The notes beneath the pieces were generated by a model. The model did no database searches. It was not told where the DNA came from and saw nothing but the letters and a program-made list of their open reading frames with translations. Positions 3,475 to 64,000 of a DNA stretch of 64,000 nucleotides are shown here, in pieces. Made by a program: the position numbers and the translations under genes. Source of the stretch: Natrinema salaciae (GTDB taxonomy: Archaea; Halobacteriota; Halobacteria; Halobacteriales; Natrialbaceae); contig NZ_FOFD01000004.1 of assembly GCF_900110865.1 (NCBI RefSeq), positions 124,001 through 188,000 on the forward strand, given 5' to 3'. Position 1 is the stretch's first letter; the number at the start of each line of letters is the position of its first letter.

Positions 3475-5307
3475 ATGAGAGACTCGATACCGACGCGATT
3501 GATCATCATCGTCGTACTCGTCGTGGGAGTGCTCGTGCCTGTTTCAGTGATGTACCTGGATGATACTCCCGAGGAGCGCGATGGAGAGCGCGCGCTCTCG
3601 CGAACACAGCTACCGGTAGCCGAGCACCAACGGACGGCGTTCATCGTCAACCAGTCGAGCGAACCGAATGGGGGATACACGGAACTTCCGGTACAGAACC
3701 CGGACCTGTATTCCACGTACCACTTTTTAGCGATACAAGAGCACGAGGGGATCGATACTGACGCTGCACATGCTACCGCAACCGAAGAGTGGGCTCGCGA
3801 ACTCGTCGCAGAGCGGTTTGCGGAGTCGGGGCCCCACCCGACGTCGTCCAACGAAAGCGTGGTTTCTCTTTCGGACTACTACTACGCTGCCGGTATCTTG
3901 GCACAACTCTCCGATGACAGTGCACACGAAAGACAGGTTCGCGAGAACGTCTCCGAATTCAGACTGGCCGATGGATCGTACTGTGCAGAGCGGTTGCGAG
4001 ACGGAGCGTGCGTTACCAATAGTTCGCGGGTGCTTGCAACGTATCGCGCCGTCACGACGCTCGACACCGTTGACGGGCTCGCTGATGACGAACGAAAACG
4101 GACGACGGAATGGGTACGGTCCCAGTGGGAACGCCACGAAATCCGGAACGAGAGCAGTCTCGGGACGGAATATCGACTGTTGGCGACACTCGAAGCGCTG
4201 GATGCGGACATCACGGAGCAGCGGTTATACGACGAGCGTCGATCAAACGTCACGGAGTACTTTTCGGGGCAGAGCCGTCCACTGTACGACAATATCGCCG
4301 AGTTGGAGAACCACTATTACCTTCGGCAGTACTACCACCTCGAGGACGCTGCGTTCAATCGTCGTGCGATCGCGTACCTAAACGAATCTCGACGTGCAGA
4401 CGGTGGATACAACGTTCTGGGATACAATTACTCGGATTCGAAGGGGACCGAAATCGCCACACGAGTTCGGAACGCAATCGCTGACGAACTCGAGGTCCCG
4501 CAGCGGCAGCAAGCGGACATACGGACGTTACTCGCGAAATACCGCCTCTCTGGTGGTGGATACGCGCCGGTTTACAGGCAGCGTGTATCCGCGAAAACGA
4601 CTCACTACGCGCTCGAGATCGGTCAACGATTCGGGTACGACGAGCGTGCTAGCAGGGACCGCGCTCAGATCGATTCGCTCGACGAGAGCGATTTTACTCG
4701 AGCCACTGACGTCGAATCGCTCTATCGACACGCGACCCTTCTCGAGGATTCTCGCTCGGAACTGTCCGGGGCGGTCAATAGCACACTCATCACCGTTTTC
4801 GACGAGGAAAATCGATCGCTGCGCGACTGTTACTATGCGATTCGACTGTCGAACCTGTACGAATACAGCTTGAACGAAGACACCATCATGTCGTACGTCC
4901 GCTCCCGACAGAACGACGATGGGGGATTCGGCTCGCCATCGAACACAGAAGAGACGTACTACGCGGTGATGATCGCGTCCGAACTCGACGCAACAGCGTC
5001 GCTCGATCCGACCGTCGTCGACTGGCTTCGAAACGGTCGAAACGAGAGCGGCGGATACCACGCTCGAGTCGGCGGTGACGCAGCGTCCGTTCCCGATCTC
5101 TATAGTACGCACGCGAGCGTTCGCGCCCTCTCCGCCCTCGGCGAGAAGCCAGTCGATCCGACGACGCAACGACAGTGGGTCGACTCGCTCGAGTCGCCGA
5201 ACGGTGGCTTCTACCAAACGAAGCACGAGACAACGACTCCGACGATGCAATCGACGTACTGGGGCATCGACTTGTTGTCGCTGCTCGCACCCGCTGCGGG
5301 GGAATAG
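3475..5307 (+). CDS. Membrane-anchored extracellular alpha-alpha toroid protein (prenyltransferase/squalene-cyclase-like repeats)
   Basis: A 610-residue protein with one N-terminal hydrophobic helix (about residues 8-27) and a large outer domain. At least six repeats start with a GGY/GGF turn followed by a helix pair, for example NGGYTELP near the start, DGGFGSPSN near residue 482 and NGGFYQTK near 583. This is the hallmark of the prenyltransferase/terpene-cyclase toroid fold. The stretch PDLYST occurs twice, at both ends, where protein prenyltransferase beta subunits have DxYHT with a zinc-binding histidine, so the zinc site looks lost. About ten N-x-S/T sites fit an exposed glycoprotein. 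It probably shares a transcript with the secreted protein 19 bases upstream. A binding or scaffold role is more likely than lipid transfer. Confidence 0.7.
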   Translation: MRDSIPTRLIIIVVLVVGVLVPVSVMYLDDTPEERDGERALSRTQLPVAEHQRTAFIVNQSSEPNGGYTELPVQNPDLYSTYHFLAIQEHEGIDTDAAHATATEEWARELVAERFAESGPHPTSSNESVVSLSDYYYAAGILAQLSDDSAHERQVRENVSEFRLADGSYCAERLRDGACVTNSSRVLATYRAVTTLDTVDGLADDERKRTTEWVRSQWERHEIRNESSLGTEYRLLATLEALDADITEQRLYDERRSNVTEYFSGQSRPLYDNIAELENHYYLRQYYHLEDAAFNRRAIAYLNESRRADGGYNVLGYNYSDSKGTEIATRVRNAIADELEVPQRQQADIRTLLAKYRLSGGGYAPVYRQRVSAKTTHYALEIGQRFGYDERASRDRAQIDSLDESDFTRATDVESLYRHATLLEDSRSELSGAVNSTLITVFDEENRSLRDCYYAIRLSNLYEYSLNEDTIMSYVRSRQNDDGGFGSPSNTEETYYAVMIASELDATASLDPTVVDWLRNGRNESGGYHARVGGDAASVPDLYSTHASVRALSALGEKPVDPTTQRQWVDSLESPNGGFYQTKHETTTPTMQSTYWGIDLLSLLAPAAGE

Positions 5308-21684: not shown

Positions 21685-22725
21685 CTACGAATCGGTGCCG
21701 TCGGCCGCCTCGGCGGCGAGATCGGCGTACGCGTCCCACGACGGATCGACCCGCGGGTGCTCGAGCCGGTCTTCGTCCACCCGCACCTCGCTTTCCCCGT
21801 TTCCGACGGCCTCGACACGGCCGATTTCGGCGACCGGTGTCTCCCGCGCCTCGAGCGCGCCGCGGACGGCCGCGACGCCGTCCGGGTCGACCGCGAGCAG
21901 GAGCGAGCCGCAGCTGGTCGCCGCCCAGGGGTCGAACGCGAGGGCCTCGCAGACCTCGCGGACGCCGGGACGCATCGGCACGGCGTCCCCGTCGACGGCG
22001 AACCGGACGCCAGCGCCGTCGGCCATCTCGTTGAGCGCGCCCGCGAGCCCGCCTTCGGTGACGTCGTGCATCGCTCGCACCGGAACCGCGGCGGCCGCGG
22101 TGAGCGCGTCGCGAACGGCGAAGACCTCCTCGAGCCGCTCCTGTGCGTCCGCGATCACGTCGGCCGGCAGCTCGAGCTGCTCGCCGAAGAGCGTACTCAG
22201 CAGGCCGACCGACTCGACGGCGGGCCCGTTCGTCAGGAGGAGGCGGTCGCCGGGGCGGGCCCCGTCCGGGCGGACGATCTCGTCGTGATCGCCGACGCCC
22301 ATCGCGGTGGCGGCACCGACCCACGGATGCGACGGGTCCGCGTAGCGGGCCGTGTGTCCGGTCACGACCGCGACTCCCAGGTCCGTACACTCCGCGTGGA
22401 TCGTCTCCCAGACCGTCGCGAACTCCTCGTCGGTCATCCCCTCGGGGAGCGTGAAACAGATGGAGAGATGCGACGGCGGAACGCCGCTGACGGCCACGTC
22501 CGCGAGTACGAGGTCGAGGGCGAACCGCGCCGCCCGCTCGAGGCCCAGCGCGGGGAGGATCGACAGCGGGTCGGTGGCGGTGACCAGCGCCCGGCCGCCG
22601 ATATCGACGACGCCGAAGTCGACGCCGTGGGCGGGACCGACGGCGACGTCGTCGCGATCGGCACCGAGGTTCGGCGCGATGTGACGGTCGAAGAACGCTC
22701 GATCGATTTTGCCGAGATCGCTCAC
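21685..22725 (-). CDS. AIR synthase-related protein (HypE/ThiL-like ATP-binding fold)
   Basis: A 346-residue protein of the PurM/HypE/ThiL/SelD superfamily. The N-terminal half carries GGRALVTATDPLS and LVLADVAVSGVPPSHLS, where these proteins place the metal-binding aspartates, and the C-terminal half carries AMHDVTEGGLAGALNEMA, a hallmark of the family (D-x-T-x-G-G-L). The Gly-rich N-terminal motif is not the GDDAA of true ThiL, so thiamine-phosphate kinase is uncertain. HypE is unlikely since no hydrogenase genes are near and the C-terminal cysteine of HypE is missing. The position close to the thiamine genes on the same strand supports a link, but the 200-base gap leaves it open. Confidence 0.8.
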   Translation of the reverse strand: MSDLGKIDRAFFDRHIAPNLGADRDDVAVGPAHGVDFGVVDIGGRALVTATDPLSILPALGLERAARFALDLVLADVAVSGVPPSHLSICFTLPEGMTDEEFATVWETIHAECTDLGVAVVTGHTARYADPSHPWVGAATAMGVGDHDEIVRPDGARPGDRLLLTNGPAVESVGLLSTLFGEQLELPADVIADAQERLEEVFAVRDALTAAAAVPVRAMHDVTEGGLAGALNEMADGAGVRFAVDGDAVPMRPGVREVCEALAFDPWAATSCGSLLLAVDPDGVAAVRGALEARETPVAEIGRVEAVGNGESEVRVDEDRLEHPRVDPSWDAYADLAAEAADGTDS

Positions 22726-52130: not shown

Positions 52131-52835
52131 ATGGCGAAGCCCTCACGATCCCGAACGCAGTCGGAAACCTACCTGCGCGCCGATTCCGGTGGCGACGACG
52201 GGTCGAGGACGGGATCGGGGAGCCCGATCCTCGAACTCCTCGTCATCTTCGCGCTCGTGCTCGTCGTTCAGGGACTCACCGCGTTCGTCGGCGTGATGAG
52301 CGGCCTGTTCGTCCTCGCGCCGCCGTTGACGACGAACCCGTGGACGATCGTCACGAGCGTCTACGCCCACGACGGGTTTGGCCACCTCGTGTCGAACAGC
52401 ATCGCGCTGCTCGTCTTCGGCTGGCCGGTCGCACGGGCCACGACGCGAGCGCACTTTCACGCCTTCTTCGTCATCACGGGCGCGATCGCCGGCGTCTCCC
52501 AGATCGTCATCACGGGCGCGATCGCGGCGATCCCGTTCGTTCCCGTCGCGCCGACAGCGGGCGTACTCGGTGCCAGCGGAGCCGTCTTCGCCCTGCTGGG
52601 ATATCTCGTCGCGTCGAACCGGCTGTCGAGCGGGCTGGCCTCGGTCGTCGATATCCCGCGCTGGCTGTCGATCCTCGTCGCCCTCGGCCTCGCGACCGCA
52701 GTGACCTTCGCGACCGCCTCACCCGGCGTCGCGCTGATCGCCCACTTCACCGGCTTCCTCGTCGGCGTCCTCGCCGGGCGCGCTCGAGTCCTCGCCGTCG
52801 ACTCCGGGCCGGCCGGCGGGCGGTCCGCCGTGTGA
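52131..52835 (+). CDS. Rhomboid-family intramembrane serine protease
   Basis: A 234-residue protein with six helices. The substrate-entry region HDGFGHLVSNSIALLVFGWP (helix 2) supplies the conserved His and Asn, GASGAVFALLGYL the catalytic serine (GxSG) and AHFTGFLVGVLAG the catalytic histidine. It cleaves transmembrane segments within the membrane. The first 35 residues are polar. Start ATG 52131 is preceded by a TATA-like cttttatc about 28 bases upstream, so the alternative start at 52092 is unlikely. Expected targets are membrane or surface glycoproteins; none can be named. Confidence 0.9.
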   Translation: MAKPSRSRTQSETYLRADSGGDDGSRTGSGSPILELLVIFALVLVVQGLTAFVGVMSGLFVLAPPLTTNPWTIVTSVYAHDGFGHLVSNSIALLVFGWPVARATTRAHFHAFFVITGAIAGVSQIVITGAIAAIPFVPVAPTAGVLGASGAVFALLGYLVASNRLSSGLASVVDIPRWLSILVALGLATAVTFATASPGVALIAHFTGFLVGVLAGRARVLAVDSGPAGGRSAV

Positions 52836-52947: not shown

Positions 52948-53019
52948 GGGCTCGTAGATCAGTGGTAGATCGCTTCCTTCGCAAGGAAGAGGCCTCGGGT
53001 TCAAATCCCGACGAGTCCA
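52948..53019 (+). tRNA. tRNA-Ala (anticodon CGC)
   Basis: A complete cloverleaf of 72 bases without encoded CCA. The acceptor arms GGGCTCG and CGAGTCC pair with the G3-U70 wobble that is the identity element for alanyl-tRNA synthetase; the anticodon arm CTTCC/GGAAG encloses TTCGCAA with CGC at the anticodon; the T arm carries GGTTCAAATCC. The discriminator is A. No intron is seen. Its 3' end is the left border of the integrated element. Confidence 0.95.
52990..53019 (+). other. Probable attachment site (attL) in the tRNA 3' end
   Basis: The 3' half of the tRNA gene (from the T arm to the discriminator) is a classic integration target of archaeal tyrosine recombinases. Chromosomal genes stop here and virus-like genes follow. 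The second copy (attR) and the integrase would lie beyond the right window edge, so this is an inference. Confidence 0.5.
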
Positions 53020-53809: not shown

Positions 53810-54021
53810 CCGAGGACTTGACAGCCTTCGGTCTCCAGCCGCAGGACTCGGCTGACGATGAGGCCGACGAGGTTTCGGAAACGGAATCGGAAACCGAGTC
53901 AGCCCCGGTCTGGCCGGAGTGCGAAGACTGTGGCTACGGTGGGCCGGAGGTGAAGTGCCGGCTTGGTCAGTCGGTCCCACTCTGTACCGCGTGCTTCGCG
54001 GAGCGCGAGGGACTGCTATGA
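53806..54021 (+). CDS. Small protein with C-terminal zinc ribbon
   Basis: A 71-residue protein from ATG 53806. The first half is acidic (DDEADEVSETESETESAP), and the second half is CEDCGYGGPEVKC followed by CTACFAEREG, a four-cysteine zinc ribbon. It overlaps the preceding gene by four bases and the Rep-like gene by four. Such ribbons bind DNA or a partner protein; here the coupling suggests a role with the Rep-like protein. Confidence 0.6.
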   Translation: MTEDLTAFGLQPQDSADDEADEVSETESETESAPVWPECEDCGYGGPEVKCRLGQSVPLCTACFAEREGLL

Positions 54022-55640
54022 AGGCCGTCGAACTGGCCTTCCACGAGTTCGCGGCGAACTACCTGTTCGACGATCATGCGCTGAAGCCGTTCTTCGCGTG
54101 CGATTCGCGGGTGAAGGACGGCGACGGGTCGCAGGTGGCCGAGTTCGAGATCGGGAGCGAACGCTGGGTCGTCAAACTGTACTATCAGGATAGCGGCATC
54201 GTCCATCCCGGCCCGGAGAACCCGCAGGGAACGCCGTTCAGGATCAACGAGATACGCGAATTCCGGTTCGCCGTCTCGCGGCATCCAGAGGAAGACCCAG
54301 TGGGCGAGCAGTCGTTCAACGCGCACCTGGCTCCACGCTGGCAGGGCATGGAAATCGAGAACGACCAGGGCAAGCGCTCGGAGTACAGCGTTCCCGAGCC
54401 GATCACCGAGGCGGTGAACGTCAAGATCAACGGCTCGAACATCGACTTTCGGCGGTATCACGAACTGCTGTGCCGGGCCGCCGAGTCAGTCGGCATCCAT
54501 CGGCGGTACTTCGAGCGTCCCCACCAGTTCAGCAACGTGCAGGACGCCGAGCGATACGTTCGCCTGGACAGTGACCGCTCCGGGCCGATCCACGCTCGAG
54601 ACGGTCCGATCGCGAGTATGGCGCACTTACTCGAGAACGACCGAGATGGGTATCGGAAACTCGTACAGAACGAGCGCGACGAGAAAGGGAGGCACTTGCC
54701 CGGTTACTATCACACGGTCACGCTTGGCCCGAGACGGGTATCTGAGGCCTTCCCGAGTCACACGTTTCCCCGTGAAGTGAAACACTACTACAGCCGCGAG
54801 GCCGCCGGGATGGACGACGACGAGACGCTGGCGAATCCGAAGCTCGGCGCGTCCTATCAGGTGAGCCGGTGGGACGAGACGATCGGCGTTACCGACGACG
54901 ACCTCGAGGCGCTGATCACACAGCTGGACGAGACGGTGTGTTCGGTGATGGCCGACGCCGGCATTCCGGTTCACCCCGCGGACGACGATCGCGGCGATGG
55001 GCATGGGCCGTTCGTCTCGGATGCCTACTTCGATCCGACCGAGGAGCAAGAGGTGAACGTCGTCTCGCTGGATCTCACCCGGATACGCGAGACGCAAGAG
55101 AGTGTCGTCGTGAAACACCTCTCAGATGGGCTTTCTCCGGTCGAATGGGAAGCTCTCGAGACGCTGGTCACTGACGGAGGCCAGGTGTCCCCGCAGGATA
55201 TCGCCGAGGAACACGGCCGCCACGTCGACAGCGTGCGACGGGCGCTGAAACGGATTCCCGAGTTAGTCGAGTCCGAGTACGGCTCGGTCTCGCTTCGATC
55301 GAATCACGTCGCCGAGATGGTCCACGACGCGGTACAGGAGGCTCGCGACGCGACCCGGCGGGCAGTCGAGGCTGGGGCGAAGGCGCTCGAGGCCGCCGAG
55401 CGTGGAATCGACGAGACGACGAGCGCGCTGGTAGCCTGGTGTGCGAAGCACGGCATCGACGTCGACGATCGGCAGGAGGCTCGCGTCATGTTCCGACTCC
55501 AGGGCGTCGAGAACGTCGAGGCACGGTTGAAAGAGGCCTACCGGCTGTGGACGGAAGCCGGGAAGGACCCCGCGCGGTTCCGCTCCGCGCAGATCGACCT
55601 CGGCGAGCGCGGCAAGAGCGCAGCCTGGCGCTGGCTGTAG
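54018..55640 (+). CDS. Large Rep-like protein of the element with winged-helix C-terminal part
   Basis: A 540-residue protein from ATG 54018, the last gene of the coupled operon. The N-terminal two-thirds contain AFHEFAANYLFDDHALKPFF, WVVKLYYQD and CRAAESVGIHRRYFERPHQF with no catalytic motif I can name. The C-terminal part, LSPVEWEALETLVTDGGQVS with DIAEEHGRHVDSVRRALKRI (about residues 372-413), is a winged helix, followed by a coiled helical stretch (EARDATRRAVEAGAKALEAA). This layout resembles replication proteins of haloarchaeal pleolipoviruses such as SNJ2 and of small plasmids, as I recall. A five-hairpin structure lies 100 bases downstream. Replication initiation is an inference. Confidence 0.6.
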   Translation: MKAVELAFHEFAANYLFDDHALKPFFACDSRVKDGDGSQVAEFEIGSERWVVKLYYQDSGIVHPGPENPQGTPFRINEIREFRFAVSRHPEEDPVGEQSFNAHLAPRWQGMEIENDQGKRSEYSVPEPITEAVNVKINGSNIDFRRYHELLCRAAESVGIHRRYFERPHQFSNVQDAERYVRLDSDRSGPIHARDGPIASMAHLLENDRDGYRKLVQNERDEKGRHLPGYYHTVTLGPRRVSEAFPSHTFPREVKHYYSREAAGMDDDETLANPKLGASYQVSRWDETIGVTDDDLEALITQLDETVCSVMADAGIPVHPADDDRGDGHGPFVSDAYFDPTEEQEVNVVSLDLTRIRETQESVVVKHLSDGLSPVEWEALETLVTDGGQVSPQDIAEEHGRHVDSVRRALKRIPELVESEYGSVSLRSNHVAEMVHDAVQEARDATRRAVEAGAKALEAAERGIDETTSALVAWCAKHGIDVDDRQEARVMFRLQGVENVEARLKEAYRLWTEAGKDPARFRSAQIDLGERGKSAAWRWL

Positions 55641-55740
55641 CGGACGGTCGGCCAGTGGCAACACTATTCTGACACCCATATTTCGCCGTTTTTCGCGCGT
55701 AGTAGCCCGGTCTGGGTCCCGATCGGCACGCGGCTCGAGG

Positions 55741-55896
55741 GTGGCCGGGGACAAGCCCCGGCCACGCCTGACGGGGAACCACGACGGGGGCCGTCGGGTT
55801 CCCCGTTAGGGGTGTGGCTAAGGCCACATCATCAAAATACACCGCACCGCTCCGTAGCGGTGCAGCAGAAACACCTCCCTGTCGCCAAGGCGACAG
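55741..55896 (+). repeat. Array of five perfect hairpins downstream of the Rep-like gene
   Basis: Five stem-loops follow one another with short spacers. (1) 55741-55765: 10-bp stem GTGGCCGGGG, loop acaag. (2) 55771-55806: 16-bp stem with one bulged A and a GGG loop, outer arm ACGGGGAACC. (3) 55811-55830: 8-bp stem with one G-U, loop TAAG. (4) 55844-55863: 8-bp GCACCGCT, loop ccgt. (5) 55879-55896: 8-bp CTGTCGCC, loop aa. There is no reading frame through it. A replication origin, an assembly signal or a structured RNA are the options; I see no direct-repeat iterons. Confidence 0.75.
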
Positions 55897-56028
55897 CGCC
55901 AAAAAATTACAGCGCCCCACCCCACCCTCCGTACACCAGATCTCCAGTTGAAGCACATGAAACGAAGGAAGTAGCATCACAAGCAATTATGTCCAGGTAT
56001 TAACACCCTGCTTGCTGAATTTGTAGAT

Positions 56029-56730
56029 ATGACATCCAGAAAATCAGCAGAAAGATTAGTTAGCGCTATAATTGAGTCCTACCAAGATACATCTCCGCTA
56101 CGAAGTGAATTTGATTGTAGAGTCTTTGACAAACAGCCAAGTTCTGAATATACCGTTCTGTCGAACAAAATGCAGGGGACATCTAATCTCCTTGCCCCCG
56201 ATATTGAATTCTTTGGGAACTTCCCGCAATCAATTGCAAATAATATAGGGGTCTGGGAGAGGAACCATATCCTTAATAATATTAGGGATCGGGATTCCCT
56301 ATCGATCTCAGTTGACGCGGTTACCGAAGAAGAGTTATTTGATGTTCTTACTATTGTAGATAATCCTACGAAAGTCTATCTTCCGTTTGAGAAGGAGTAC
56401 ATGAAGGAGTACATGATGGATAAAAGCGGTATACTTTCTGAAAATATAGACGTTGAGTGGTTGAACTCAGATATAGATGATTTTGAAAAGGGATTTGTTG
56501 TGGATTCCAATAGAATCCAAATATCACAATACAGTCAGATGCCACCATCTTATGCCATAGAAATAGATGATATTATGTCTGAATATAGCGATATTTCTGA
56601 TGACGCCTCTATATTTGTTGAATTTTCTAGACCGGACGATCCATCGGAGATTGAATTATACTTTGGAACGGTTCTTGACGAGAACCCATATTTCGGGCCC
56701 AGATCGATTGGTACAATAGAAATGCCTTAG
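56029..56730 (+). CDS. Unknown protein in AT-rich island
   Basis: A 233-residue protein from ATG 56029. Composition is much more AT-rich than the chromosome (codons such as aaa, ata, tta are frequent), which points to foreign origin. It is mainly acidic and polar, mixed alpha/beta, without signal peptide or membrane helix. I recognise no motif; segments such as FFGNFPQSIANNIGVWERN and VDNPTKVYLPFEKEYMKEYM give no family hint. It ends in FGPRSIGTIEMP. The closely related decamer CTTGCTGAAT lies just upstream at 56011. It is likely cargo not needed for the element's own cycle. Confidence 0.65.
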   Translation: MTSRKSAERLVSAIIESYQDTSPLRSEFDCRVFDKQPSSEYTVLSNKMQGTSNLLAPDIEFFGNFPQSIANNIGVWERNHILNNIRDRDSLSISVDAVTEEELFDVLTIVDNPTKVYLPFEKEYMKEYMMDKSGILSENIDVEWLNSDIDDFEKGFVVDSNRIQISQYSQMPPSYAIEIDDIMSEYSDISDDASIFVEFSRPDDPSEIELYFGTVLDENPYFGPRSIGTIEMP

Positions 56731-57034
56731 GCCCACTTTGTACCTTCTCCCCTCCTTCGTACGTCAAAAGAATGCATTCCCCACGTATCAACATGAGATA
56801 GAGGACGTCGTGTGCATATTCATTGGGCGGCACCGCAGTGAATTCAGGGTGCAATGGTTAACACTGAATGTTCGTGTTTATGAGTATGCCCCTAAGGGGG
56901 CAAGGTGATTGCGTGCCGCGCTTGAGAAAATTGAGACAGCCGATATTGGACGCCGTAGTATGACTACACGACTACTATGATGTATTGATACCTCGATAAC
57001 TGCGATTGTCAGATATACCTACGAGGGATTATGA
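56731..57034. other. Non-coding AT-rich stretch with repeated leader motifs
   Basis: No convincing gene. The sequence holds GTGTGCATATT at 56810-56820 and gttcgtgtttatgagtatgc at 56869-56889, both of which recur in diverged form in front of the gene at 58149, plus a 6-bp hairpin TGCCCC/GGGGCA with loop TAAG at 56887-56902. It may be the leader of a gene that has since been lost. Confidence 0.5.
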
Positions 57035-57223
57035 GTGAAGCCGCAACCAAACGTGAGCGTTATGCGACAACCACGAGACGACCTGTTGATCATCTACGCA
57101 CTGTCAGTGCTTGCTTGGGAGCATAGAAGTATGGAGAAGGAAGAGTGGGCATTCGATCTTGCGGCCGAGATCGCTTATCAACATGGACTCAAAGTAAGCG
57201 ACGCAATTCGCCAGCTCAAATAG
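57035..57223 (+). CDS. Possible small protein (62 residues), start uncertain
   Basis: From GTG 57035 it encodes a helical peptide with IIYALSVLAWEHRSMEKEEW and FDLAAEIAYQHGLKVSDAIR. The second part reads like a helix-turn-helix. An ATG at 57031 in another frame gives a 31-residue ORF, so a frameshifted ancestor is possible. There is no strong promoter, and the composition is intermediate. I give it modest confidence; it could also be a pseudogene fragment. Confidence 0.4.
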   Translation: MKPQPNVSVMRQPRDDLLIIYALSVLAWEHRSMEKEEWAFDLAAEIAYQHGLKVSDAIRQLK

Positions 57224-57387
57224 ATCATGTCCTAAGGGGACTAAGCGAAAATCACACCCCTTTGCATTCATCTCTGAATATAGGACTCCAGTTAAAGCAT
57301 ATACTCTCCACTGGACCATAGTTTCACTCAAATATCAAATCCATCTTAGATCCAACTTATTATGTTCTATCGATACGTCTAATCGGT

Positions 57388-57945
57388 ATGGCCGATGTGG
57401 AAGAGCTAGAAGTAGAACAAAATGTCAGTTTACATCGTCTGGCAACTGCGGTTGAGAATTCAAATGAAGACGGCATTGATTTCTGGAAGGACCTCTTGGA
57501 AGAATCTAAATCAACATTCCAAAACAGCTTGTCGTCTGTCCAAAACACTCGTGACAGAGCTATTGAACTAATCAAAATTGATCTGGTCTTGGGGTCTTTT
57601 TATGTTGCGCTGTTTCGATTCGGATCTTCCAGTTTCGACTTCCCCTCTAATCCATATATTCTGTCACTTCCATTCATAATCCTCCTTAGCTCTATGTTCA
57701 TTTTCCTAATAGCTTATTTTACATTAGGGTCACGCACAATTGGGGCAAGTAGTGGAAATGTATATCAGGCTATTTCGGAGGAATTTGGTCAACTCCAATT
57801 TTGCCAAACAATGGCAATCATGTATGCGAAATGGACAGACAAGAATATGAAGACACATCGCAAAGGTGTTAAGCTTGTGACTGTTGGAGTCGGAGTGATT
57901 TTCGCTTCCCTCGGAACAGTAGCTGGAATTTTTGCTTTTGTCTAA
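57388..57945 (+). CDS. Membrane protein with about three helices, unknown function
   Basis: A 185-residue protein from ATG 57388. The first 60 residues are polar and helical, then come a weak helix (LIKIDLVLGSFYVALF, about 64-79), a strong one (PYILSLPFIILLSSMFIFLI, about 90-109) and a C-terminal one (VTVGVGVIFASLGTVAGIFA). Between the last two is a cytoplasmic helical part with YAKWTDKNMKTH. The layout is like small effector membrane proteins found beside nucleic-acid sensors in defence systems (SLATT-like), but I see no family signature. AT-rich codon use marks it as foreign. A complete GmrSD-like nuclease lies 650 bases downstream. Confidence 0.65.
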   Translation: MADVEELEVEQNVSLHRLATAVENSNEDGIDFWKDLLEESKSTFQNSLSSVQNTRDRAIELIKIDLVLGSFYVALFRFGSSSFDFPSNPYILSLPFIILLSSMFIFLIAYFTLGSRTIGASSGNVYQAISEEFGQLQFCQTMAIMYAKWTDKNMKTHRKGVKLVTVGVGVIFASLGTVAGIFAFV

Positions 57946-57984
57946 TTCCCCTCCCGGTTGTACATCAACGAATCCGGTTTCCCG

Positions 57985-58021
57985 AATATGCACACAAGGT
58001 ACGAAACTTCGTGTGCATATT
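57985..58021 (+). promoter_or_regulatory. 11-bp inverted repeat upstream of the small gene at 58149
   Basis: AATATGCACAC at 57985-57995 is mirrored by GTGTGCATATT at 58011-58021, a perfect 11-bp inverted repeat with a 15-base centre. The right arm recurs exactly at 56810-56820. It may be an operator; a transcript end after the membrane protein gene is an alternative. Confidence 0.55.
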
Positions 58022-58148
58022 GAGTGACGATTGCCCCAATCGAGCCCGAAACGTGTCGGATAGAGTGACAAGATACCCCTGTTTCGTTGGCTATGGGCCG
58101 CTCGAGATAGACGAAAAAACTAGGATATAGGGGTTCGTGTGTACGAGT

Positions 58149-58403
58149 ATGCGAATCCGAACCGACGGTGACTACGCGTATCGGAACGATGCGATCGAAC
58201 GTGCAGCGGACTTCTACGACTGTAACAAGACGAAAGCCATCGTTTCAGCGTGTGACGACGTGCCGAAACTGGTTGCCGCCGCACGCCAAGTCCTCGAGCG
58301 GGACGACCTTACCCTTGATCAACGCCGGGAGATTGCCGAGACACTCTCTACCCGAGCTGTGGACTTCGAAATAGAACAGTCAGTGAACGTCTACCGAGAT
58401 TAG
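58149..58403 (+). CDS. Small haloarchaeal protein (DUF7692-like)
   Basis: An 84-residue protein from ATG 58149 with RIRTDGDYAYRNDAIERAAD, CNKTKAIVSACDDVPKLVAA and LDQRREIAETLST. I recall similar sequences as a haloarchaeal family found mostly on plasmids and viruses. The middle part (F-Y-D-C-N-K-T-K-A-I) could be a ribbon-helix-helix- or HTH-like DNA-binding element, so a repressor is a fair guess. The composition is nearer to the chromosome than the AT-rich cargo. Repeated leader motifs stand upstream. Confidence 0.65.
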   Translation: MRIRTDGDYAYRNDAIERAADFYDCNKTKAIVSACDDVPKLVAAARQVLERDDLTLDQRREIAETLSTRAVDFEIEQSVNVYRD

Positions 58404-58449
58404 AGGCCGTGTCGAATCTCTCAGTAGGTGATAGATCCCAGCCGCCATG

Positions 58450-58516
58450 CTGAATACACAGCGCAAATCGGTCACTCGTCAGGCGGCATTTGGAGTGGCA
58501 TCGGAGTTGTATTCAG
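58450..58516. repeat. Short inverted repeat related to the 60.7-kb element
   Basis: CTGAATACA (58450-58458) and TGTATTCAG (58508-58516) form a perfect 9-bp inverted repeat 67 bases long overall. The same CTGAATA core forms the ends of the 181-base element at 60710-60890. The region from 58,404 to 58,567 otherwise holds no gene and looks like a remnant of a transposable element. Confidence 0.5.
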
Positions 58517-58567
58517 AAAATTGATAGATCAGAAAAACTGGGCCAGCGGTGAAAATATGATAAACAA

Positions 58568-58582
58568 AATTATTATAAATAT
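58568..58582 (+). promoter_or_regulatory. Promoter of the DUF262 gene
   Basis: An AT-only tattataaatata-type stretch about 20-33 bases before ATG 58601, one of the strongest TATA elements in the window. Confidence 0.6.
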
Positions 58583-58600
58583 AGAAGATTAGTCATTGAC

Positions 58601-60583
58601 ATGGACGGTACACCAGACGATAATTTTTCTCTGTCATCAGTATTCAGTCAATCCTACTTTGAGATTCCTGATTACCAGAGGGATTACGCTTGGGAAAAGT
58701 CCAATGTAGACGACTTGATCGACGACGTGGAATTTGTTTATAAGCAAAATAACAGCTCCGAGTCCAGCGAACGATTAGACCACTACTTCGGAACACTCGT
58801 ATTAGAAGAGAGAGGGAACATTGAACCGACCGACTACGAGGAGTTTGACAATTACGGCATAGTCGACGGACAGCAGAGACTAGCTACAGTCGCTATCGTT
58901 ATCTCTGCAATAATTGACGAGATGGCTAATATCGAAAAGAGCCGGGATGTTAGCACAGATTTTTCTAAAACGATTGAAAAACGAAGAGAGGATATTGCGG
59001 ATAAATATGTTGAATACGAGGGGATTGAGAGAATCCGCTTGGGTGGTCTCGCCAAAGATGCGTATGATAATGTTATTCTTGATAACACATCTCCAGAAAG
59101 TTATCTAGAACAGGATGACCTCGTTGAGGCTGAGAGGAAGATTGCGAGGGCTAAAGCCACGACCCTTTCTCGATTGGCGCAATGGAGGGAATCCGAGTAT
59201 CAAAATGGCTCAACCGACTATGCAGGGTATTATAAATTATTGAATAATATCACCCAAATAATCACACAGAGGTTTGAGGTCAATGTGAAAGTTGTAGAGG
59301 ATATTGACGAAGCGGCAAGGATGTTCAAGGTGATTAACGATCGAGGGAGGGATTTGCGATTACACGATAAGATCAGGAGTCATCTTGTCTACTGTGCGTC
59401 TCAATCAGAAAGCTTGGACTCTGAAGACATATATCAGAGATTTAATAACATTGTGCGGAATATCACAATCCACGACGGATTTTCTGATGTCGAAGTTGAT
59501 GACCTCGTAAGGATTCATTGGGAAGTGTTTGCTAGTGAGCGCTCTGATTCCCGGTCGAAGCGTCCCGGCCCCTCGGAGATTCATCGACGCCTTTCCGATC
59601 TCGATGACTTCGCGAGTGTTCAGAGACCGAATTTTGAATCATTTATCAGTCCGTATCTAAACTCGCTTGAGAACTTCTCGGAGCTATACCCGTATCTCAC
59701 TAACAGGGACAAATTTGCAGAAAGGTATTTTAACCCAAACAAAAGCCATGATTCGCCAATCAACGAATCGGTGAGAAAGGTCCAACTTCTATTTCTACAC
59801 GCTGGGTCACAGTCTGCAACCACGCCGATATTATTCGCAACAGCCGACAAATTCGGTGTCCAGTCTCCTGAATTTGCGGACATGGTATCTGAGCTAGAGA
59901 AGTTGGTTTTCAGATATAGTATGGTAATGTCTCATGGCGCCCAAGGATTTGCTAACGCACTCTCATCGATTGCCAACGACCTGTATTGGTCGGATGTTGA
60001 CCCAGAACAGGTCGCCGAGGTATTCAATTCTGAAAGTCATCGCTACATAGGATATCAGTCAAAAGAACTTGGGATTAAGGACGCAATCGAACGAATCATC
60101 GAAAAACGAGAGCGGATTGCTCCAATTGAAGAAGTAGTATCTGATTTCTTAGATACTCCAGATGTGCTAGATGGCTCTTTCACTTCCGGATGGGGGGGAG
60201 TGAGGAGTAGTGAGGTTGTAAAATACATCATGTATGAGTATGAGAGAAGCCTTCGAGGCCCGTCCGGGCTTCTCTCGCTTGCCCCCTACCATGAGTTCCG
60301 GAAAAACTTCCAAGTTGAACATCTTGTTCCGAAAAATGCTGAGGAAGGTAATCGGTTGGAAGCTCACATGGAGAATCGCAACCGTATCGGTAACTTAGCT
60401 GTGCTCAGCAATGGTGAAAACCAATCTGAAGGGAATTCCGCCTTTGAGTCCAAATATAACGACATCTACTCAAGCTCTTCATTGAAAGTCCTCAGAGACC
60501 TCAATGGTCCGGACTTCACGGTTGGGAATGTATCTATGCGTAACGAAGAATTGCTTGATTTCATCAATGAGCGATGGGGTTGA
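58601..60583 (+). CDS. GmrSD-like DUF262 plus HNH (DUF1524) protein, modification-dependent nuclease
   Basis: A 660-residue single-chain protein with both halves of GmrS/GmrD. The N-terminal DUF262 domain has EIPDYQRDYAWEK (about residues 26-38) and YGIVDGQQRLATVAIVIS (about 89-106), where D-G-Q-Q-R is the NTP-using ParB/Srx-type motif. The C-terminal DUF1524 domain has FQVEHLVPKNAEEG and RIGNLAVLSNGENQSEGNSA (about 570-612), an HNH-type nuclease core. GmrSD proteins cut DNA with modified cytosine in a nucleotide-stimulated way and protect against phages. Its AT-rich codon use differs from the chromosome. All key motifs are intact, so it looks active. Confidence 0.88.
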   Translation: MDGTPDDNFSLSSVFSQSYFEIPDYQRDYAWEKSNVDDLIDDVEFVYKQNNSSESSERLDHYFGTLVLEERGNIEPTDYEEFDNYGIVDGQQRLATVAIVISAIIDEMANIEKSRDVSTDFSKTIEKRREDIADKYVEYEGIERIRLGGLAKDAYDNVILDNTSPESYLEQDDLVEAERKIARAKATTLSRLAQWRESEYQNGSTDYAGYYKLLNNITQIITQRFEVNVKVVEDIDEAARMFKVINDRGRDLRLHDKIRSHLVYCASQSESLDSEDIYQRFNNIVRNITIHDGFSDVEVDDLVRIHWEVFASERSDSRSKRPGPSEIHRRLSDLDDFASVQRPNFESFISPYLNSLENFSELYPYLTNRDKFAERYFNPNKSHDSPINESVRKVQLLFLHAGSQSATTPILFATADKFGVQSPEFADMVSELEKLVFRYSMVMSHGAQGFANALSSIANDLYWSDVDPEQVAEVFNSESHRYIGYQSKELGIKDAIERIIEKRERIAPIEEVVSDFLDTPDVLDGSFTSGWGGVRSSEVVKYIMYEYERSLRGPSGLLSLAPYHEFRKNFQVEHLVPKNAEEGNRLEAHMENRNRIGNLAVLSNGENQSEGNSAFESKYNDIYSSSSLKVLRDLNGPDFTVGNVSMRNEELLDFINERWG

Positions 60584-60928: not shown

Positions 60929-61327
60929 TTAGAAAATATCGCCGATGGCGATTTTTGATTGCTCGGTTCCACGGTGATCGCCACCCCCATGCCACCGGAG
61001 CATGGGCAACGACGAGGCCTTGCACATTTTATCCTTAATGATCGTACAGCCAGACCGTCCGTGCGGCCGGTAGACGACGAAACAGTACCAGCCATCGTGA
61101 CTCCGTAGCTTGTCGTGGTAGGCCCTGTAGACTTTGAAATTCCCCGGCTGTCCGTCGCTGTGCTCGAGCATGGTCGACTTGATTTCAACCGGCGTTCCGT
61201 TTCCGAATCGCGCGTCGTGCCAGCTGGCCCGCTCGAGATCGAACCGCCGTTTCTCCGCCATCCGTTTCTCGCAGATCGTCCCGAAGTGGTTCGCTCGCTT
61301 CGAGCGGGAGCGACTCACGCGGACCAC
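60929..61327 (-). CDS. PD-(D/E)XK-like nuclease-fold protein of the element
   Basis: A 132-residue basic protein from GTG 61327 (GTG 61318 also possible). WHDARFGNGTPVEIKSTM (about residues 35-52) fits a PD-(D/E)XK active site: the aspartate in DARFG, then E-x-K in VEIKS. GWYCFVVYRPHG is the next core strand. Restriction-like, Holliday-junction and packaging nucleases share this fold. The gene is downstream of the ATPase on the same strand with its own promoter at 61341. From memory similar genes occur in haloarchaeal viruses and plasmids. Its function here is unproven. Confidence 0.65.
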   Translation of the reverse strand: MVRVSRSRSKRANHFGTICEKRMAEKRRFDLERASWHDARFGNGTPVEIKSTMLEHSDGQPGNFKVYRAYHDKLRSHDGWYCFVVYRPHGRSGCTIIKDKMCKASSLPMLRWHGGGDHRGTEQSKIAIGDIF

Positions 61328-61340
61328 GCGCGTCGCGCGC

Positions 61341-61351
61341 CGATATATATC
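61341..61351 (-). promoter_or_regulatory. Promoter of the PD-(D/E)XK-like gene
   Basis: On the minus strand a gatatatatc element lies 15-33 bases before the two possible GTG starts. Spacing favours GTG 61318 as a leaderless start. Confidence 0.55.
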
Positions 61352-61376
61352 AACTCCTCATCGTGTCTCGACGAGC

Positions 61377-61418
61377 GCCCATCGGTCGCGTTGCTCCCTG
61401 CGGGAGCAAGCGATGGGC
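61377..61418. other. Composite hairpin between the ATPase gene and the nuclease-like gene
   Basis: GCCCATCG (61377-61384) pairs with CGATGGGC (61411-61418), and inside it TTGCTCCC (61391-61398) pairs with GGGAGCAA (61402-61409) around a TGC loop. One side has a 6-base bulge. It may stop transcription after the ATPase gene or be a stable RNA element; no T-run follows on either strand. Confidence 0.6.
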
Positions 61419-61475
61419 CTGACCGTGTACTAAACGGGGGTGCGTTACCATAACCAGCCGACCAACCCGTCGCGG

Positions 61476-62657
61476 TCATCCGATTACTTCCTCCACTTTG
61501 CCAAGCGTCTCAGCGTGCATCCCATCGTTTCGGTACTCGTTCCAGCGGGAATTTACCCATCCGTGGCTGTATGGCACGAATTGAGCGGTTTCACGATCCG
61601 TCATTCCGTCCTCTTTGCACCGGATCACCGTCCAAATCGCCGTCATCTTGGCCGCCTCGTCAGGCTCCAATTCCTCCGTTTCCTCGCCATACTCCGACCA
61701 ATTCCAATCGCTCGCCTCTTTCGTGTTGTATCGAAGGTCCGTCGGTGGGACACCTTCGACTTCGCCCTGGATATCGGCGAGTTTCCCGTTCCTGATTGAA
61801 TCGGCGATGACGGCCTTCTTTTGCGAGACCTTCTTGACGATCGTGCCGACGCGCCAGAGCATCGGGTGAATCGACCGTTCCCCGTGGGCGATGTAGATGA
61901 GCGCGCCGCCGTACTTGCGGATCTTGTAGACGAGCGGGGCCATCTTCTGCCGCGTTTGGTAGCCCTGTTTCCCGGTCCCGCTGGCTGCGCTCGAGAACTC
62001 GTCGCCGATGAACAGCTTGTCGCGCTGGCTGTGCTCGAGCGGATCACCGTCCTGTTCGACCCACTCCATGAGGGTTCCGTAGTCGGGAATCCAGCCGTCC
62101 TGTACGTCACCGTCGTCGTCTACCCAGCGGTTTTTCTCCTCGAGCGAGCGGATGTTCGTGCCGAGTAGCGAGTTCTCCTGGTGGAGTGCCCGCCACCGTT
62201 GTGCGAGGAGGCACGCGAAGTCGGTCTTTCCCGCGCCCATCTCGCCCATGACGACGATCACCGGAGCGGGGCCGTCGACAAGCTCGTCTATCTTTCCGAT
62301 CGCCTTCAACCCGGAGATGTCCGCCCGCTGGCTGGTGTCGCCGACCATGTGCTTGATCGTCGGCATATCGCCGTTCTCCATCGCTTCGCGGAAGGTTTCG
62401 GTTCCCTCAGCCAGCCGAATTTGCTCGTGTTTCTCGAGATCGTGAACCTGGCCGGGCATCTTGTCGGGTCGATCGGCCGCTGTCGGATCGTAGTGAATCG
62501 ATCGGATCGACAGCGCCCGCGAAACCGTCTCGTCGCGGACGATCCCGCCGTGGTCGGCGATTTCTCGATTCTCTCGGGCACTGTACCCCTCCTGGTGTTC
62601 TCTCGCTGCAGCGGTCGTATAGAGTGCCTGCTGATCGGCCTGCTTTCCGTCACTCAT
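61476..62657 (-). CDS. P-loop ATPase, pleolipovirus VP8-like
   Basis: A 393-residue ATPase from ATG 62657. Walker A GEMGAGKT is at residues 138-145, Walker B LFIGDE at 215-220, and the C-terminus ends in a helix-turn-helix-like stretch (DRETAQFVPYSHGWVNSRWN). The order ATPase after two membrane proteins, with ATGA overlaps, is that of the pleolipovirus conserved block, where VP8 is the putative NTPase thought to act in DNA handling or assembly. The exact virus group cannot be set from this window. It is cytoplasmic. Confidence 0.75.
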   Translation of the reverse strand: MSDGKQADQQALYTTAAAREHQEGYSARENREIADHGGIVRDETVSRALSIRSIHYDPTAADRPDKMPGQVHDLEKHEQIRLAEGTETFREAMENGDMPTIKHMVGDTSQRADISGLKAIGKIDELVDGPAPVIVVMGEMGAGKTDFACLLAQRWRALHQENSLLGTNIRSLEEKNRWVDDDGDVQDGWIPDYGTLMEWVEQDGDPLEHSQRDKLFIGDEFSSAASGTGKQGYQTRQKMAPLVYKIRKYGGALIYIAHGERSIHPMLWRVGTIVKKVSQKKAVIADSIRNGKLADIQGEVEGVPPTDLRYNTKEASDWNWSEYGEETEELEPDEAAKMTAIWTVIRCKEDGMTDRETAQFVPYSHGWVNSRWNEYRNDGMHAETLGKVEEVIG

Positions 62658-63463
62658 TCGTTGATCCCTCCGTCGGATACGGTGGTCTGCTCGCTGCCCT
62701 GATCGATCGTGATACCGCTCGGATCGGTCGGATCAAACTCGTGTTCGTAGTCGCCGAGGTCGCTGATTTCGTCGGTCGACCACTCTTTCGCGTCGTCTTC
62801 GGCTGCCTCGAAGCGTTCCTTCACGCTGGTCCGCTGGGTCATGAGCCCGCGCTCGTCGGCTTCGGCGTGGGCATTCACGGTGTCGCGTTCGATCTCGACA
62901 CCCATCCGGGAGATACGACCGCGAAGCTTGTTGTACGCGATCGCCGTCTCGATCAACTCGCCGTGGATGTCCTCGAGCATGGCCTTGACCGTGATGAGTT
63001 TCGAATCCGCCATCTGGCTGAAGTGGCAGCCGGTAACGATGAGGGTCCCGTTCTCGCCCTGATCCGGGTACCAGTCGAACTCGCGAACCTCGAACGCGTC
63101 GCCGTCGTTACACCGGTACGGCGACGGTCCTTCGACGGTTTTGTTCTCCCAGACACCCGGCTCGACGTATTTCTTCTTGCGGGTGTCGGTGACGCCGTTG
63201 ATGTGGTAGACCGGGACCATGTTCCGGTTTCGGAGCCGGCGCGCACCGGTCACGAACAGCCCGAGCAACGGCGGCCCGAGGAGCAACAGCGCCGCGAAGA
63301 TCCCCTTCGTGACTGGCGGAACACCGGGAATCTCCGGACGAATCCAGAGCAACAGCGCCCCGAGCGTAACCGCGAACCCGGCGACGACCAGCTGGCCTTC
63401 GGCGACGACGTAGGTCAGCCGATCGGCCCATCCGCTAAAGGTACCGCTCGTCTCGGGACTCAC
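62654..63463 (-). CDS. Membrane protein, pleolipovirus ORF7-like
   Basis: A 269-residue protein from GTG 63463, whose start overlaps the upstream stop (GTGA) and whose stop overlaps the ATPase start (ATGA). Two or more helices lie near the N-terminus (LVVAGFAVTLGALLLWI and AALLLLGPPLLGLFVTG, about 20-75). The rest is a soluble domain with VPVYHINGVTDTRKKKYVEP, SPYRCNDGDAFEVREFDWYP and a helical part with NKLRGRISRMGVEIERD. The topology and gene order fit the ORF7-like membrane protein of pleolipoviruses. A longer start at 63505 would overlap the upstream gene more and is less likely. Confidence 0.65.
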   Translation of the reverse strand: MSPETSGTFSGWADRLTYVVAEGQLVVAGFAVTLGALLLWIRPEIPGVPPVTKGIFAALLLLGPPLLGLFVTGARRLRNRNMVPVYHINGVTDTRKKKYVEPGVWENKTVEGPSPYRCNDGDAFEVREFDWYPDQGENGTLIVTGCHFSQMADSKLITVKAMLEDIHGELIETAIAYNKLRGRISRMGVEIERDTVNAHAEADERGLMTQRTSVKERFEAAEDDAKEWSTDEISDLGDYEHEFDPTDPSGITIDQGSEQTTVSDGGINE

Positions 63464-64000
63464 GCATCGATCACCCCGCTTTCCTCCGACCGAACGACCC
63501 ACCACGCGCCGACCGCGGCGAGAACGACGGTCATGCCGACGCCGGTGAATAGCCCGCTCTCGCCGCCGAACGTCTCGAGGGGGTTCGATTCGCTGCTGTC
63601 TCGACCGGTGCTGATGAACGCGCCGCGCTCTTCCTCTTGACTGAGCGACGTTCCGAAGGTGAGCGCCGCGCCTTCGGGGTCCATTACCGAGATCGTGTGT
63701 GTCGACTCGCCTTCGGGAACCGCAAGTTCTCGGTAGGTGAACTGGCCAGAGCCTTCTTCGAAGCTCCCCGATTCGGCGACCGCAACCGTCGTCGGCTCGT
63801 CCGCCTCGAGCGTGATCGTGAACGTCCCATCGTCAAACGACCACTCGAGGATGCGGGTGTTGCTGTCGATGATCTCCTCGTAGTCGCTTGCCGTCGTATT
63901 CGTGGCTGTCTCATTGGCGTCCTGCGCGGCGACAGGCCCACCGCCCATGCCCATCGCGAGCGCGGCCGCTGCGACAACAGCGACAAGAATAATTCGGCGC
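63460..64000 (-). CDS. Exported protein with C-terminal anchor, pleolipovirus ORF6-like (5' end outside the window)
   Basis: The frame is open to the right edge and begins within a signal peptide (RRIILVAVVAAAALAMGMGG, then PVAAQDANETA), so only the first residues are missing. The internal ATG at 63954 lies inside this signal. The mature part has a beta-rich domain (ILEWSFDDGTFTITLEADEP, TIGVMDPEGAALTF-like) and a hydrophobic helix near the end (LFTGVGMTVVLAAVGAWWVV), followed by a few charged residues. It is translationally coupled to the ORF7-like gene. This fits ORF6 of pleolipoviruses, the small protein before ORF7. Confidence 0.65.
   Translation of the reverse strand, partial: RRIILVAVVAAAALAMGMGGGPVAAQDANETATNTTASDYEEIIDSNTRILEWSFDDGTFTITLEADEPTTVAVAESGSFEEGSGQFTYRELAVPEGESTHTISVMDPEGAALTFGTSLSQEEERGAFISTGRDSSESNPLETFGGESGLFTGVGMTVVLAAVGAWWVVRSEESGVIDA

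What the first reader, a model, noticed from the sequence alone, without database searches (positions are those of the whole stretch)
55741..55896. Five consecutive perfect hairpins after the Rep-like gene
Five stems of 8-16 bp, four of them fully paired apart from one G-U or one bulge, occupy almost all of 156 bases. I do not know this structure from described haloarchaeal replicons. Position next to the Rep-like gene favours a replication origin (double- or single-strand), an encapsidation signal or a structured non-coding RNA. Their loops differ (acaag, ggg, taag, ccgt, aa), so they are not copies of one unit.
Basis: seen in the sequence. Interest (0 to 1): 0.66.

Follow-up and report, generated by a model that had tools for sequence, protein, structure and literature searches.

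The report
Provirus replication origin with grafted second origin
The five hairpins are the rolling-circle replication origin of a virus integrated in a salt-loving archaeon, of a kind described in 2026, with the start of a second, different origin grafted behind it; that second origin recurs across related genomes as a loose ~90-base unit next to AT-rich cargo genes.

Summary
In detail: five hairpins fill 55,741-55,896 (fold z about -8.5, no shuffle of 200 as good). The upstream 'Rep-like' gene is a DUF7845 protein, i.e. Rep-Arvir, the betapleolipovirus rolling-circle initiator described in 2026 (PMC13107129). The locus is a ~15.4-kb betapleolipovirus-type provirus in tRNA-Ala. Hairpin 3 (TGTGGC-TAAG-GCCACA, 178 nt after the rep stop) is the published nick hairpin. 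Hairpin 2 is the sequence-variable inverted repeat abutting it. Both are kept, with covarying arms, across dozens of loci. Hairpins 1 and 4 are accessory: significant in the window and a few relatives only. Hairpin 5 is different: it is the nick hairpin of another Rep-Arvir origin subtype and begins a ~90-bp unit (55,880-55,969). That unit occurs in 88 of 121 Natrialbaceae genomes, often without a Rep gene, with sharp edges, AT-rich unshared DNA to its right, and direct-repeat arrays with other origins; a decayed copy lies at 57,228. So the core is a new member of a known kind, and the stacked, mismatched double origin is a new variant. The most novel open reading is that such origins dock defence-like cargo cassettes. 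Nicking and mobility were not testable here.

The parts
54018..55640 (+). rep gene, 540 aa, DUF7845 / Rep-Arvir initiator (KHYY motif, predicted catalytic Tyr257)
   Evidence: PF25227 E=1.2e-115; 59% identical to HRPV-3 ORF9 over its full length; residues aligned with SNJ2 RepSNJ2
55654..55665 (+). conserved motif AGTGGCAACACT just after the rep stop; probably the 'motif 1' of SNJ2 (near the operon's transcription end)
   Evidence: 58 of 67 homologous loci within 45 nt of the stop, background 0.4%; PMC13107129
55741..55765 (+). hairpin 1, accessory; present in the close Natrinema relatives, zone also structured in HGPV-1 and SNJ2 but not general
55767..55810 (+). hairpin 2 = upstream inverted repeat (presumed Rep binding site), sequence-variable, arms co-vary
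   Evidence: arm-swap test, none of 2000 permutations reaches the observed value; z=-6.1; role inferred from SNJ2 mutants
55813..55828 (+). hairpin 3 = nick hairpin of the provirus's own origin (TGTGGC TAAG GCCACA)
   Evidence: conserved in nearly all DUF7845 loci; 94% of cells paired, 3 of 6 pairs with double changes, 0/500 shuffles on paired cells and covariation
55829..55845 (+). conserved tail of the type-1 origin (TCATCAAAATACACCGC)
55844..55863 (+). hairpin 4, accessory, lineage-specific
55879..55896 (+). hairpin 5 = nick hairpin of a second origin subtype (type 2)
   Evidence: same hairpin after the REP-2 gene in the window's own genome (L002/L095) and many relatives
55880..55969 (+). 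~90-bp type-2 origin unit, sharp left and right edges
   Evidence: HMM hit E=1e-24 in the window; conservation falls to background at both edges
55970..60583 (+). AT-rich cargo inserted to the right of the origin (44% GC against 63% in the rep module), incl. a GmrSD-type restriction gene 58601-60583
57050..57223 (+). ORF X (PHROG 25699), small ORF that ends cargo segments
57228..57301 (+). decayed third origin copy (type 2), same orientation, directly after ORF X
   Evidence: nhmmer E=3.9e-5 in the window
60932..63921 (-). HRPV-3 ORF6-ORF5-ORF4-ORF3 homologues, transcribed towards the origin
   Evidence: tblastn; PHROG matches
53006..53019 (+). attL core (tRNA-Ala 3' end, TCCCGACGAGTCCA); exact repeat at 68367-68380 beyond the window, next to an integrase-like gene

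Best explanation
The hairpins form a composite rolling-circle origin at the end of the replication operon of an integrated betapleolipovirus-type provirus. After excision, the provirus's own Rep-Arvir protein would bind the inverted repeat (H2) and nick the neighbouring hairpin (H3, loop TAAG), priming leading-strand synthesis to the right; this step is inferred from the SNJ2 experiments. H5 and the next ~75 bp are a copy of another Rep-Arvir clade's origin ('type 2') joined just behind it, giving two mismatched origins in direct orientation about 70 nt apart, followed by AT-rich cargo. H1 and H4 are lineage-specific accessory hairpins of unknown detailed role.
For: Rep identity: DUF7845 E=1e-115 and HRPV-3 ORF9 59%. 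SNJ2 E25, D207, Y283 and G410 are kept as E10, D176, Y257 and G388. The published SNJ2 origin has the same layout; stem and loop mutants abolish replication. Hairpin and tail found downstream of nearly all DUF7845 genes, stop-to-loop distance mostly 176-190 nt, window 178. Covariation of H3 and H2. Across 67 loci only the H2 and H3 zones are generally structured (median z -3.0 and -3.6); the H1 and H4 zones are not, and the H5 zone is peculiar to the window. Provirus anatomy. Type-2 unit with Rep2 at fixed spacing or as orphan.
Against: No nick, replication or excision was tested. The equivalent of SNJ2's essential E303 is Gly277 here, as also in HRPV-3 and HGPV-1. Covariation alone does not tell a DNA hairpin from an RNA hairpin. 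Closely related loci inflate pair counts.
Confidence: 0.88

Rival explanations
1. The hairpins act as RNA: a stable structured non-coding RNA or a bidirectional terminator between the convergent rep and structural operons.
For: The region lies between convergent operons; strong RNA fold; SNJ2 motif 1 lies near a transcription end.
Against: No Rfam family reaches its cut-off; the best, SorX, scores 23.4 against 46.6. The fixed Rep association and the SNJ2 loop and stem mutants point to an origin. Different nick-hairpin subtypes keep the same loop core next to different reps.
Confidence: 0.06
2. H5 and its 90-bp unit are a passive scar: a fragment of an unrelated type-2 replicon or a MITE-like insertion with no function here.
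For: Many copies lack any Rep, including two whole plasmid records without a single DUF7845 gene; left-truncated copies with Rep2 remnants exist; no Rep2 gene in the provirus.
Against: The unit is kept with both edges and a paired stem; arrays and ORF X neighbours are all in one orientation; a full Rep2 gene is present elsewhere in the same genome (L105).
Confidence: 0.45
3. The type-2 unit is the terminus of an IS91- or Helitron-like rolling-circle transposon whose transposase is Rep2.
For: 226 pairs of sites share the left flank up to the hairpin and none shares the right flank beyond +91.
Against: No fixed left end was found; the right flanks are AT-rich accessory DNA, not conserved target genes; no empty site was shown; one orthologous pair does share its right flank.
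Confidence: 0.12
4. The hairpins are an encapsidation signal of the virus.
For: The element is a provirus with virion-type genes.
Against: The same hairpins follow rep in pL6-type plasmids and other non-virion elements; SNJ2 tests show that they are needed for plasmid replication.
Confidence: 0.03

Closest known systems
SNJ2 origin and RepSNJ2 (Rep-Arvir family, PF25227), PMC13107129
   Same: DUF7845 Rep; conserved nick hairpin about 180 nt after the stop (SNJ2 189, window 178); sequence-variable inverted repeat beside it; post-stop motif 1; provirus with integrase at the opposite end
   Different: Here a second nick hairpin of another subtype and accessory hairpins H1 and H4 are added, with ~5 kb AT-rich cargo to the right; SNJ2 hairpin stem and tail differ (GGCCAAGATCCCAAACTAACCG)
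HRPV-3 and HGPV-1 (Betapleolipovirus)
   Same: Closest viral Reps (59% and 57%); same nick hairpin and tail; HRPV-3 ORF3-6 synteny; the HGPV-1 H1 and H4 zones are also structured
   Different: No type-2 unit behind the origin; no AT-rich insertion
pL6-family plasmids of Haloquadratum
   Same: Rep-Arvir Rep followed by the same kind of nick hairpin (pBAJ9-6); the region right of rep is a known site of foreign gene gain (PMC11431627)
   Different: Plasmid with a different second module; single origin
pT181-type origin (bacterial Rep_trans)
   Same: Works alike as proposed: bind site plus nick hairpin
   Different: No sequence similarity known; not a member
Integron attC and gene cassettes
   Same: Directly repeated hairpin sites that separate single cargo genes
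   Different: The sites are replication origins; no integron integrase is implied; cassette mobility not shown

Membership tests
Rep-Arvir (DUF7845) replication origin | Lies directly downstream of a DUF7845 rep gene | tested here: met
Rep-Arvir (DUF7845) replication origin | Conserved nick stem-loop at a fixed distance | tested here: met
   stop-to-loop 178 nt, most loci 176-190; pairing and covariation
Rep-Arvir (DUF7845) replication origin | Sequence-variable inverted repeat just upstream | tested here: met
   arm-swap test on 27 diverse loci: observed 7.2, permuted 4.7 with s.d. 0.27
Rep-Arvir (DUF7845) replication origin | Rep keeps the essential residues E25, Y283, E303 and G410 of RepSNJ2 | tested here: inconclusive
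   E, Y and G kept; the E303 equivalent is Gly277, as in HRPV-3 and HGPV-1
Rep-Arvir (DUF7845) replication origin | Supports replication; stem and loop essential; ssDNA intermediates | not testable with these tools
   shown for SNJ2 only
Betapleolipovirus provirus | Rep and HRPV-3-like ORF3-6 block in conserved order | tested here: met
Betapleolipovirus provirus | att repeats with an adjacent integrase | tested here: inconclusive
   14-nt repeat 53006 / 68367 found; the adjacent 335-aa ORF at 67295-68302 reads as an integrase by eye, no profile search was run
Betapleolipovirus provirus | Spike protein homologue | tested here: inconclusive
   627-aa ORF 64005-65888 in the right place, no match to HRPV-3 VP2 at E 1e-3
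Type-2 Rep-Arvir origin (H5 unit) | ~90-bp unit with nick hairpin at its left edge, as after REP-2 genes | tested here: met
Type-2 Rep-Arvir origin (H5 unit) | Own REP-2 gene and its inverted repeat upstream | tested here: not met
   type-1 rep and H4 lie upstream instead; so it is an orphan copy
IS91/Helitron-like transposon | Two fixed ends and an empty target site | tested here: inconclusive
   fixed right end only; no empty site found
Integron cassette array | IntI-type integrase acting on attC | not tested
   only the array geometry was examined

The most novel reading that the evidence does not exclude
Rep-Arvir origins in haloarchaea serve as docking and exchange sites for cargo: ~90-bp origin units, active in trans with any matching Rep, are stacked as direct repeats behind other origins, and each stretch between two origins (AT-rich, defence-like gene, often ended by ORF X) can be released as a rolling-circle unit and re-inserted at another origin, an integron-like cassette system run by replication initiators.
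Probability: 0.3. Interest if true: 0.82.

Novelty: new variant of a known kind. Interest (0 to 1): 0.52.

Why it matters
It extends a 2026 discovery (Rep-Arvir origins) to a proviral locus carrying two mismatched origins side by side, and shows that one origin subtype is scattered through most sampled Natrialbaceae genomes as a sharply bounded unit, often without its Rep. If those units are active in trans, one replication protein could mobilise cargo, including restriction and other defence-like genes, in many places of a genome; if they are not, they are a clean record of recombination at origins. Either way the boundary between conserved replication module and AT-rich cargo in these elements is the origin itself, which can be tested directly in Natrinema.

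Tried and rejected
Rfam: only tRNA-Ala; SorX on the minus strand far below cut-off. Whole-window tRNA 20-mer repeat: none inside the window; the shorter 14-nt repeat lies outside. One alignment register for H2: registers differ by 1-2 nt between loci, so an arm-swap test was used instead. Transposon reading of type 2: no common left end. Cargo flanks as conserved target genes: not found in relatives except one orthologous pair and one cargo gene without an origin. Left module (a) search for empty sites: only 5 genomes, not resolved. Viral contig scan with the Rep: no relative found. Regex for intact nick hairpins upstream of orphan units: found almost none because the neighbours are decayed or imperfect (which stopped with an error after printing; the background rate was redone). 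An origin-HMM run with a faulty input file returned nothing and was repeated. No structure prediction was run; the fold claim for DUF7845 rests on the paper.

Full report
OBSERVATION. Coordinates: H1 55741-55765, H2 55767-55810, H3 55813-55828, H4 55844-55863, H5 55879-55896. Folding 55721-55916 gives -113.6 kcal/mol as RNA (z -8.44) and -65.3 as DNA (z -8.66); none of 200 dinucleotide-preserving shuffles does as well. So the cluster is not chance.

WHAT THE GENE IS. The 'Rep-like' ORF (54018-55640, 540 aa) is DUF7845, PF25227, E = 1.2e-115, followed by a weakly matched winged-helix stretch. It is 59% identical to ORF9 of HRPV-3 and 57% to HGPV-1 ORF14 over almost full length. A paper of April 2026 (PMC13107129) shows that the DUF7845 protein of pleolipovirus SNJ2 is a rolling-circle initiator (family named Rep-Arvir) and that a hairpin downstream of its gene, with an inverted repeat beside it, is the likely origin: loop and stem-breaking mutants abolish plasmid replication, a stem-preserving mutant does not, and changing one half of the repeat lowers transformation strongly (1.9e3 to 5e1 cfu/ng). 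In the window's protein the residues equivalent to SNJ2 E25, D207, Y283 and G410 are E10, D176, Y257 (in KHYYS) and G388; the equivalent of E303 is Gly277, as in HRPV-3 and HGPV-1.

WHERE IT LIES. The locus is a provirus. HRPV-3 ORF6, 5, 4 and 3 have homologues in the same order on the minus strand at 60932-63921 (PHROG matches), and 60931-61306 is 78% identical in DNA to SNJ2 around gene 18. The 14-nt end of tRNA-Ala(CGC) (53006-53019) is repeated exactly at window coordinate 68367, just beyond an ORF at 67295-68302 whose sequence reads as a tyrosine integrase (my reading, no profile search run). This gives about 15.4 kb between the att repeats. Natrinema ejinorense carries a sister element beside the same tRNA region (L045). 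As in SNJ2, the origin sits where the rep operon and the opposing structural operon meet.

WHICH HAIRPINS MATTER. I collected the DNA after DUF7845 genes of haloarchaeal genomes, viruses and plasmids. A motif TTAGGGGTGTGGC-TAAG-GCCAC..TCAAAAYACNCCGC lies after nearly all of them, mostly 176-190 nt after the stop, 178 in the window. On 51 aligned loci the six pairs of H3 are formed in 94% of cells (85% in shuffles, 0/500), with double changes at three pairs (0/500 for cells and covariation score; 7/500 for number of pairs) and a clear drop when slid. H2 differs in sequence between loci and in register by a base or two, so I tested whether left arms fit their own right arms better than those of other loci: on 27 loci less than 70% alike the mean fit is 7.2 against 4.66 +/- 0.27 in 2000 permutations, maximum 5.8. 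Zone by zone over 67 loci, the H2 and H3 zones are structured (median z -3.0 and -3.6), the H1 and H4 zones are not (about -0.3), and the zone of H5 is structured in the window (-4.2) but not in general. H1 and H4 zones are also structured in HGPV-1 (-5.5, -4.0), and H1 in SNJ2 (-4.9), so they are accessory. The short motif after the rep stop is present in 58 of 67 loci. Shared ancestry inflates such counts; the arm-swap test was made on thinned data for that reason.

H5 IS A SECOND ORIGIN OF ANOTHER SUBTYPE. The window's own genome has another DUF7845 gene (C1, L002, 'REP-2', about 25% identical) whose downstream origin reads GGGTGTCCCCAAGGGGACTGAACCAAAAAATTACAGCGCCCC..., closely matching H5 and what follows it, with a compensated change in the stem. 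An HMM of this ~90-bp unit hits the window at 55880-55969 (E 1e-24) and again, decayed, at 57232-57301 in the same orientation (E 3.9e-5). So a type-1 and a type-2 nick hairpin stand about 70 nt apart, each followed by its own tail; this is why five hairpins are seen.

THE 90-BP UNIT ELSEWHERE. It is found in 88 of 121 Natrialbaceae genomes. Many copies stand at a fixed 183 nt after REP-2; others have only a remnant of REP-2 or none. Of the 49 sites studied in detail, chosen with a preference for sites without Rep, the script counted 15 full, 9 partial and 25 without Rep2; two of these (window 55880 full, 57228 partial) are cross-matches to the window's type-1 Rep, so 14, 8 and 27. Two plasmid records with the unit have no DUF7845 gene at all. 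In copies without Rep, conservation is at background (0.38-0.47) left of the hairpin, 0.92-0.94 in the first 20 bases, about 0.6 up to +90 and at background beyond. All-against-all, 226 pairs of sites share the left flank up to the hairpin and none shares the right flank beyond +91; a later search found one orthologous pair outside that set that shares both. DNA to the right is AT-rich: 43% against 58% GC, lower in 48 of 49 sites; for type-1 loci 51% against 64%, lower in 62 of 67. In the window 44% against 63%. Cargo genes found there include Mrr-like and type IIG restriction enzymes, a trypsin-like peptidase matching a candidate defence model, GGDEF, radical SAM and, in the window, a GmrSD-like enzyme.

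ARRAYS. Several loci hold two or three origin copies: N. aibiense plasmid (three, 1.2-1.3 kb apart), L139, L140, L126, L070 (type 1 then type 2), and the window (three); every adjacent pair of strong matches is in direct orientation. In Natrialba magadii (L223) an SNJ2-type origin is followed at once by a type-2 unit, and L249 reads the same way. A small ORF (ORF X, PHROG 25699) ends the window's first cargo segment; its relatives in 37 of 125 genomes are followed directly by a type-2 or an SNJ2-like origin, intact or decayed, in about half of the 30 loci read, and lie downstream of a type-2 unit in others; all origin matches listed there are on the same strand as ORF X. The SNJ2-like cases were read by eye from the sequence.

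MECHANISM. Shown elsewhere and inferred here: Rep binds H2, nicks in the H3 loop, and leading synthesis runs to the right. Inferred only: the type-2 unit may be nicked by a Rep2 in trans; two origins in direct repeat could release the DNA between them as a circle, because rolling-circle replication started at one origin can end at the next. I rate the first part 0.88 and the cassette reading 0.3. A scar left by recombination at origins explains the orphan units almost as well (0.45 for H5 itself).

KNOWN OR NEW. The core (H2 and H3) is a new member of the Rep-Arvir origins. The stacked mismatched origins, the orphan units and their arrays are not described in the SNJ2 paper, as far as its text was read, nor in the other papers searched; the pL6 paper does report foreign genes gained between rep and R7. 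Hence 'new variant of a known kind'.

LIMITS. All is sequence inference. The origin-unit searches used BLAST-like first looks that may miss weak copies; the long combined flank query was only partly scored per genome. Site choice was not random.

Noticed in passing
L039 and L052 (Harhisp1, HHPV3), origin tail: Two viruses with quite different Rep genes share an identical stretch to the right of the nick hairpin, as does chromosomal locus L009; a sign of recombination at the origin.
   Followed up: partly
window 57050-57223; L232-L261: ORF X (PHROG 25699, unknown function, ~57 aa) is repeatedly the last ORF before a Rep-Arvir origin.
   Followed up: partly
window 58601-60583: GmrSD-type restriction gene (also close to PADLOC Orf5/SspE models) inside the provirus's AT-rich cargo.
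   Followed up: no
L040 (Natrinema versiforme pNVE500), 3771-3818: A relative's origin has lost H2 and the left arm of H3 by an apparent deletion between two GGCCAC repeats in H1 and H3; its Rep is truncated.
   Followed up: no
downstream of several origins, e.g. L045 4850-4880, L048, L007, L092: A recurring GC-rich hairpin followed by GCGCGCGAAAAATT lies further right of many type-1 origins; possibly a terminator or single-strand origin.
   Followed up: no
window 52468-52525: Exact 22-bp direct repeat 36 bp apart inside the rhomboid-like gene left of the tRNA.
   Followed up: no
window 21916-22001: ARAGORN reports a doubtful tRNA with a four-base anticodon on the minus strand.
   Followed up: no
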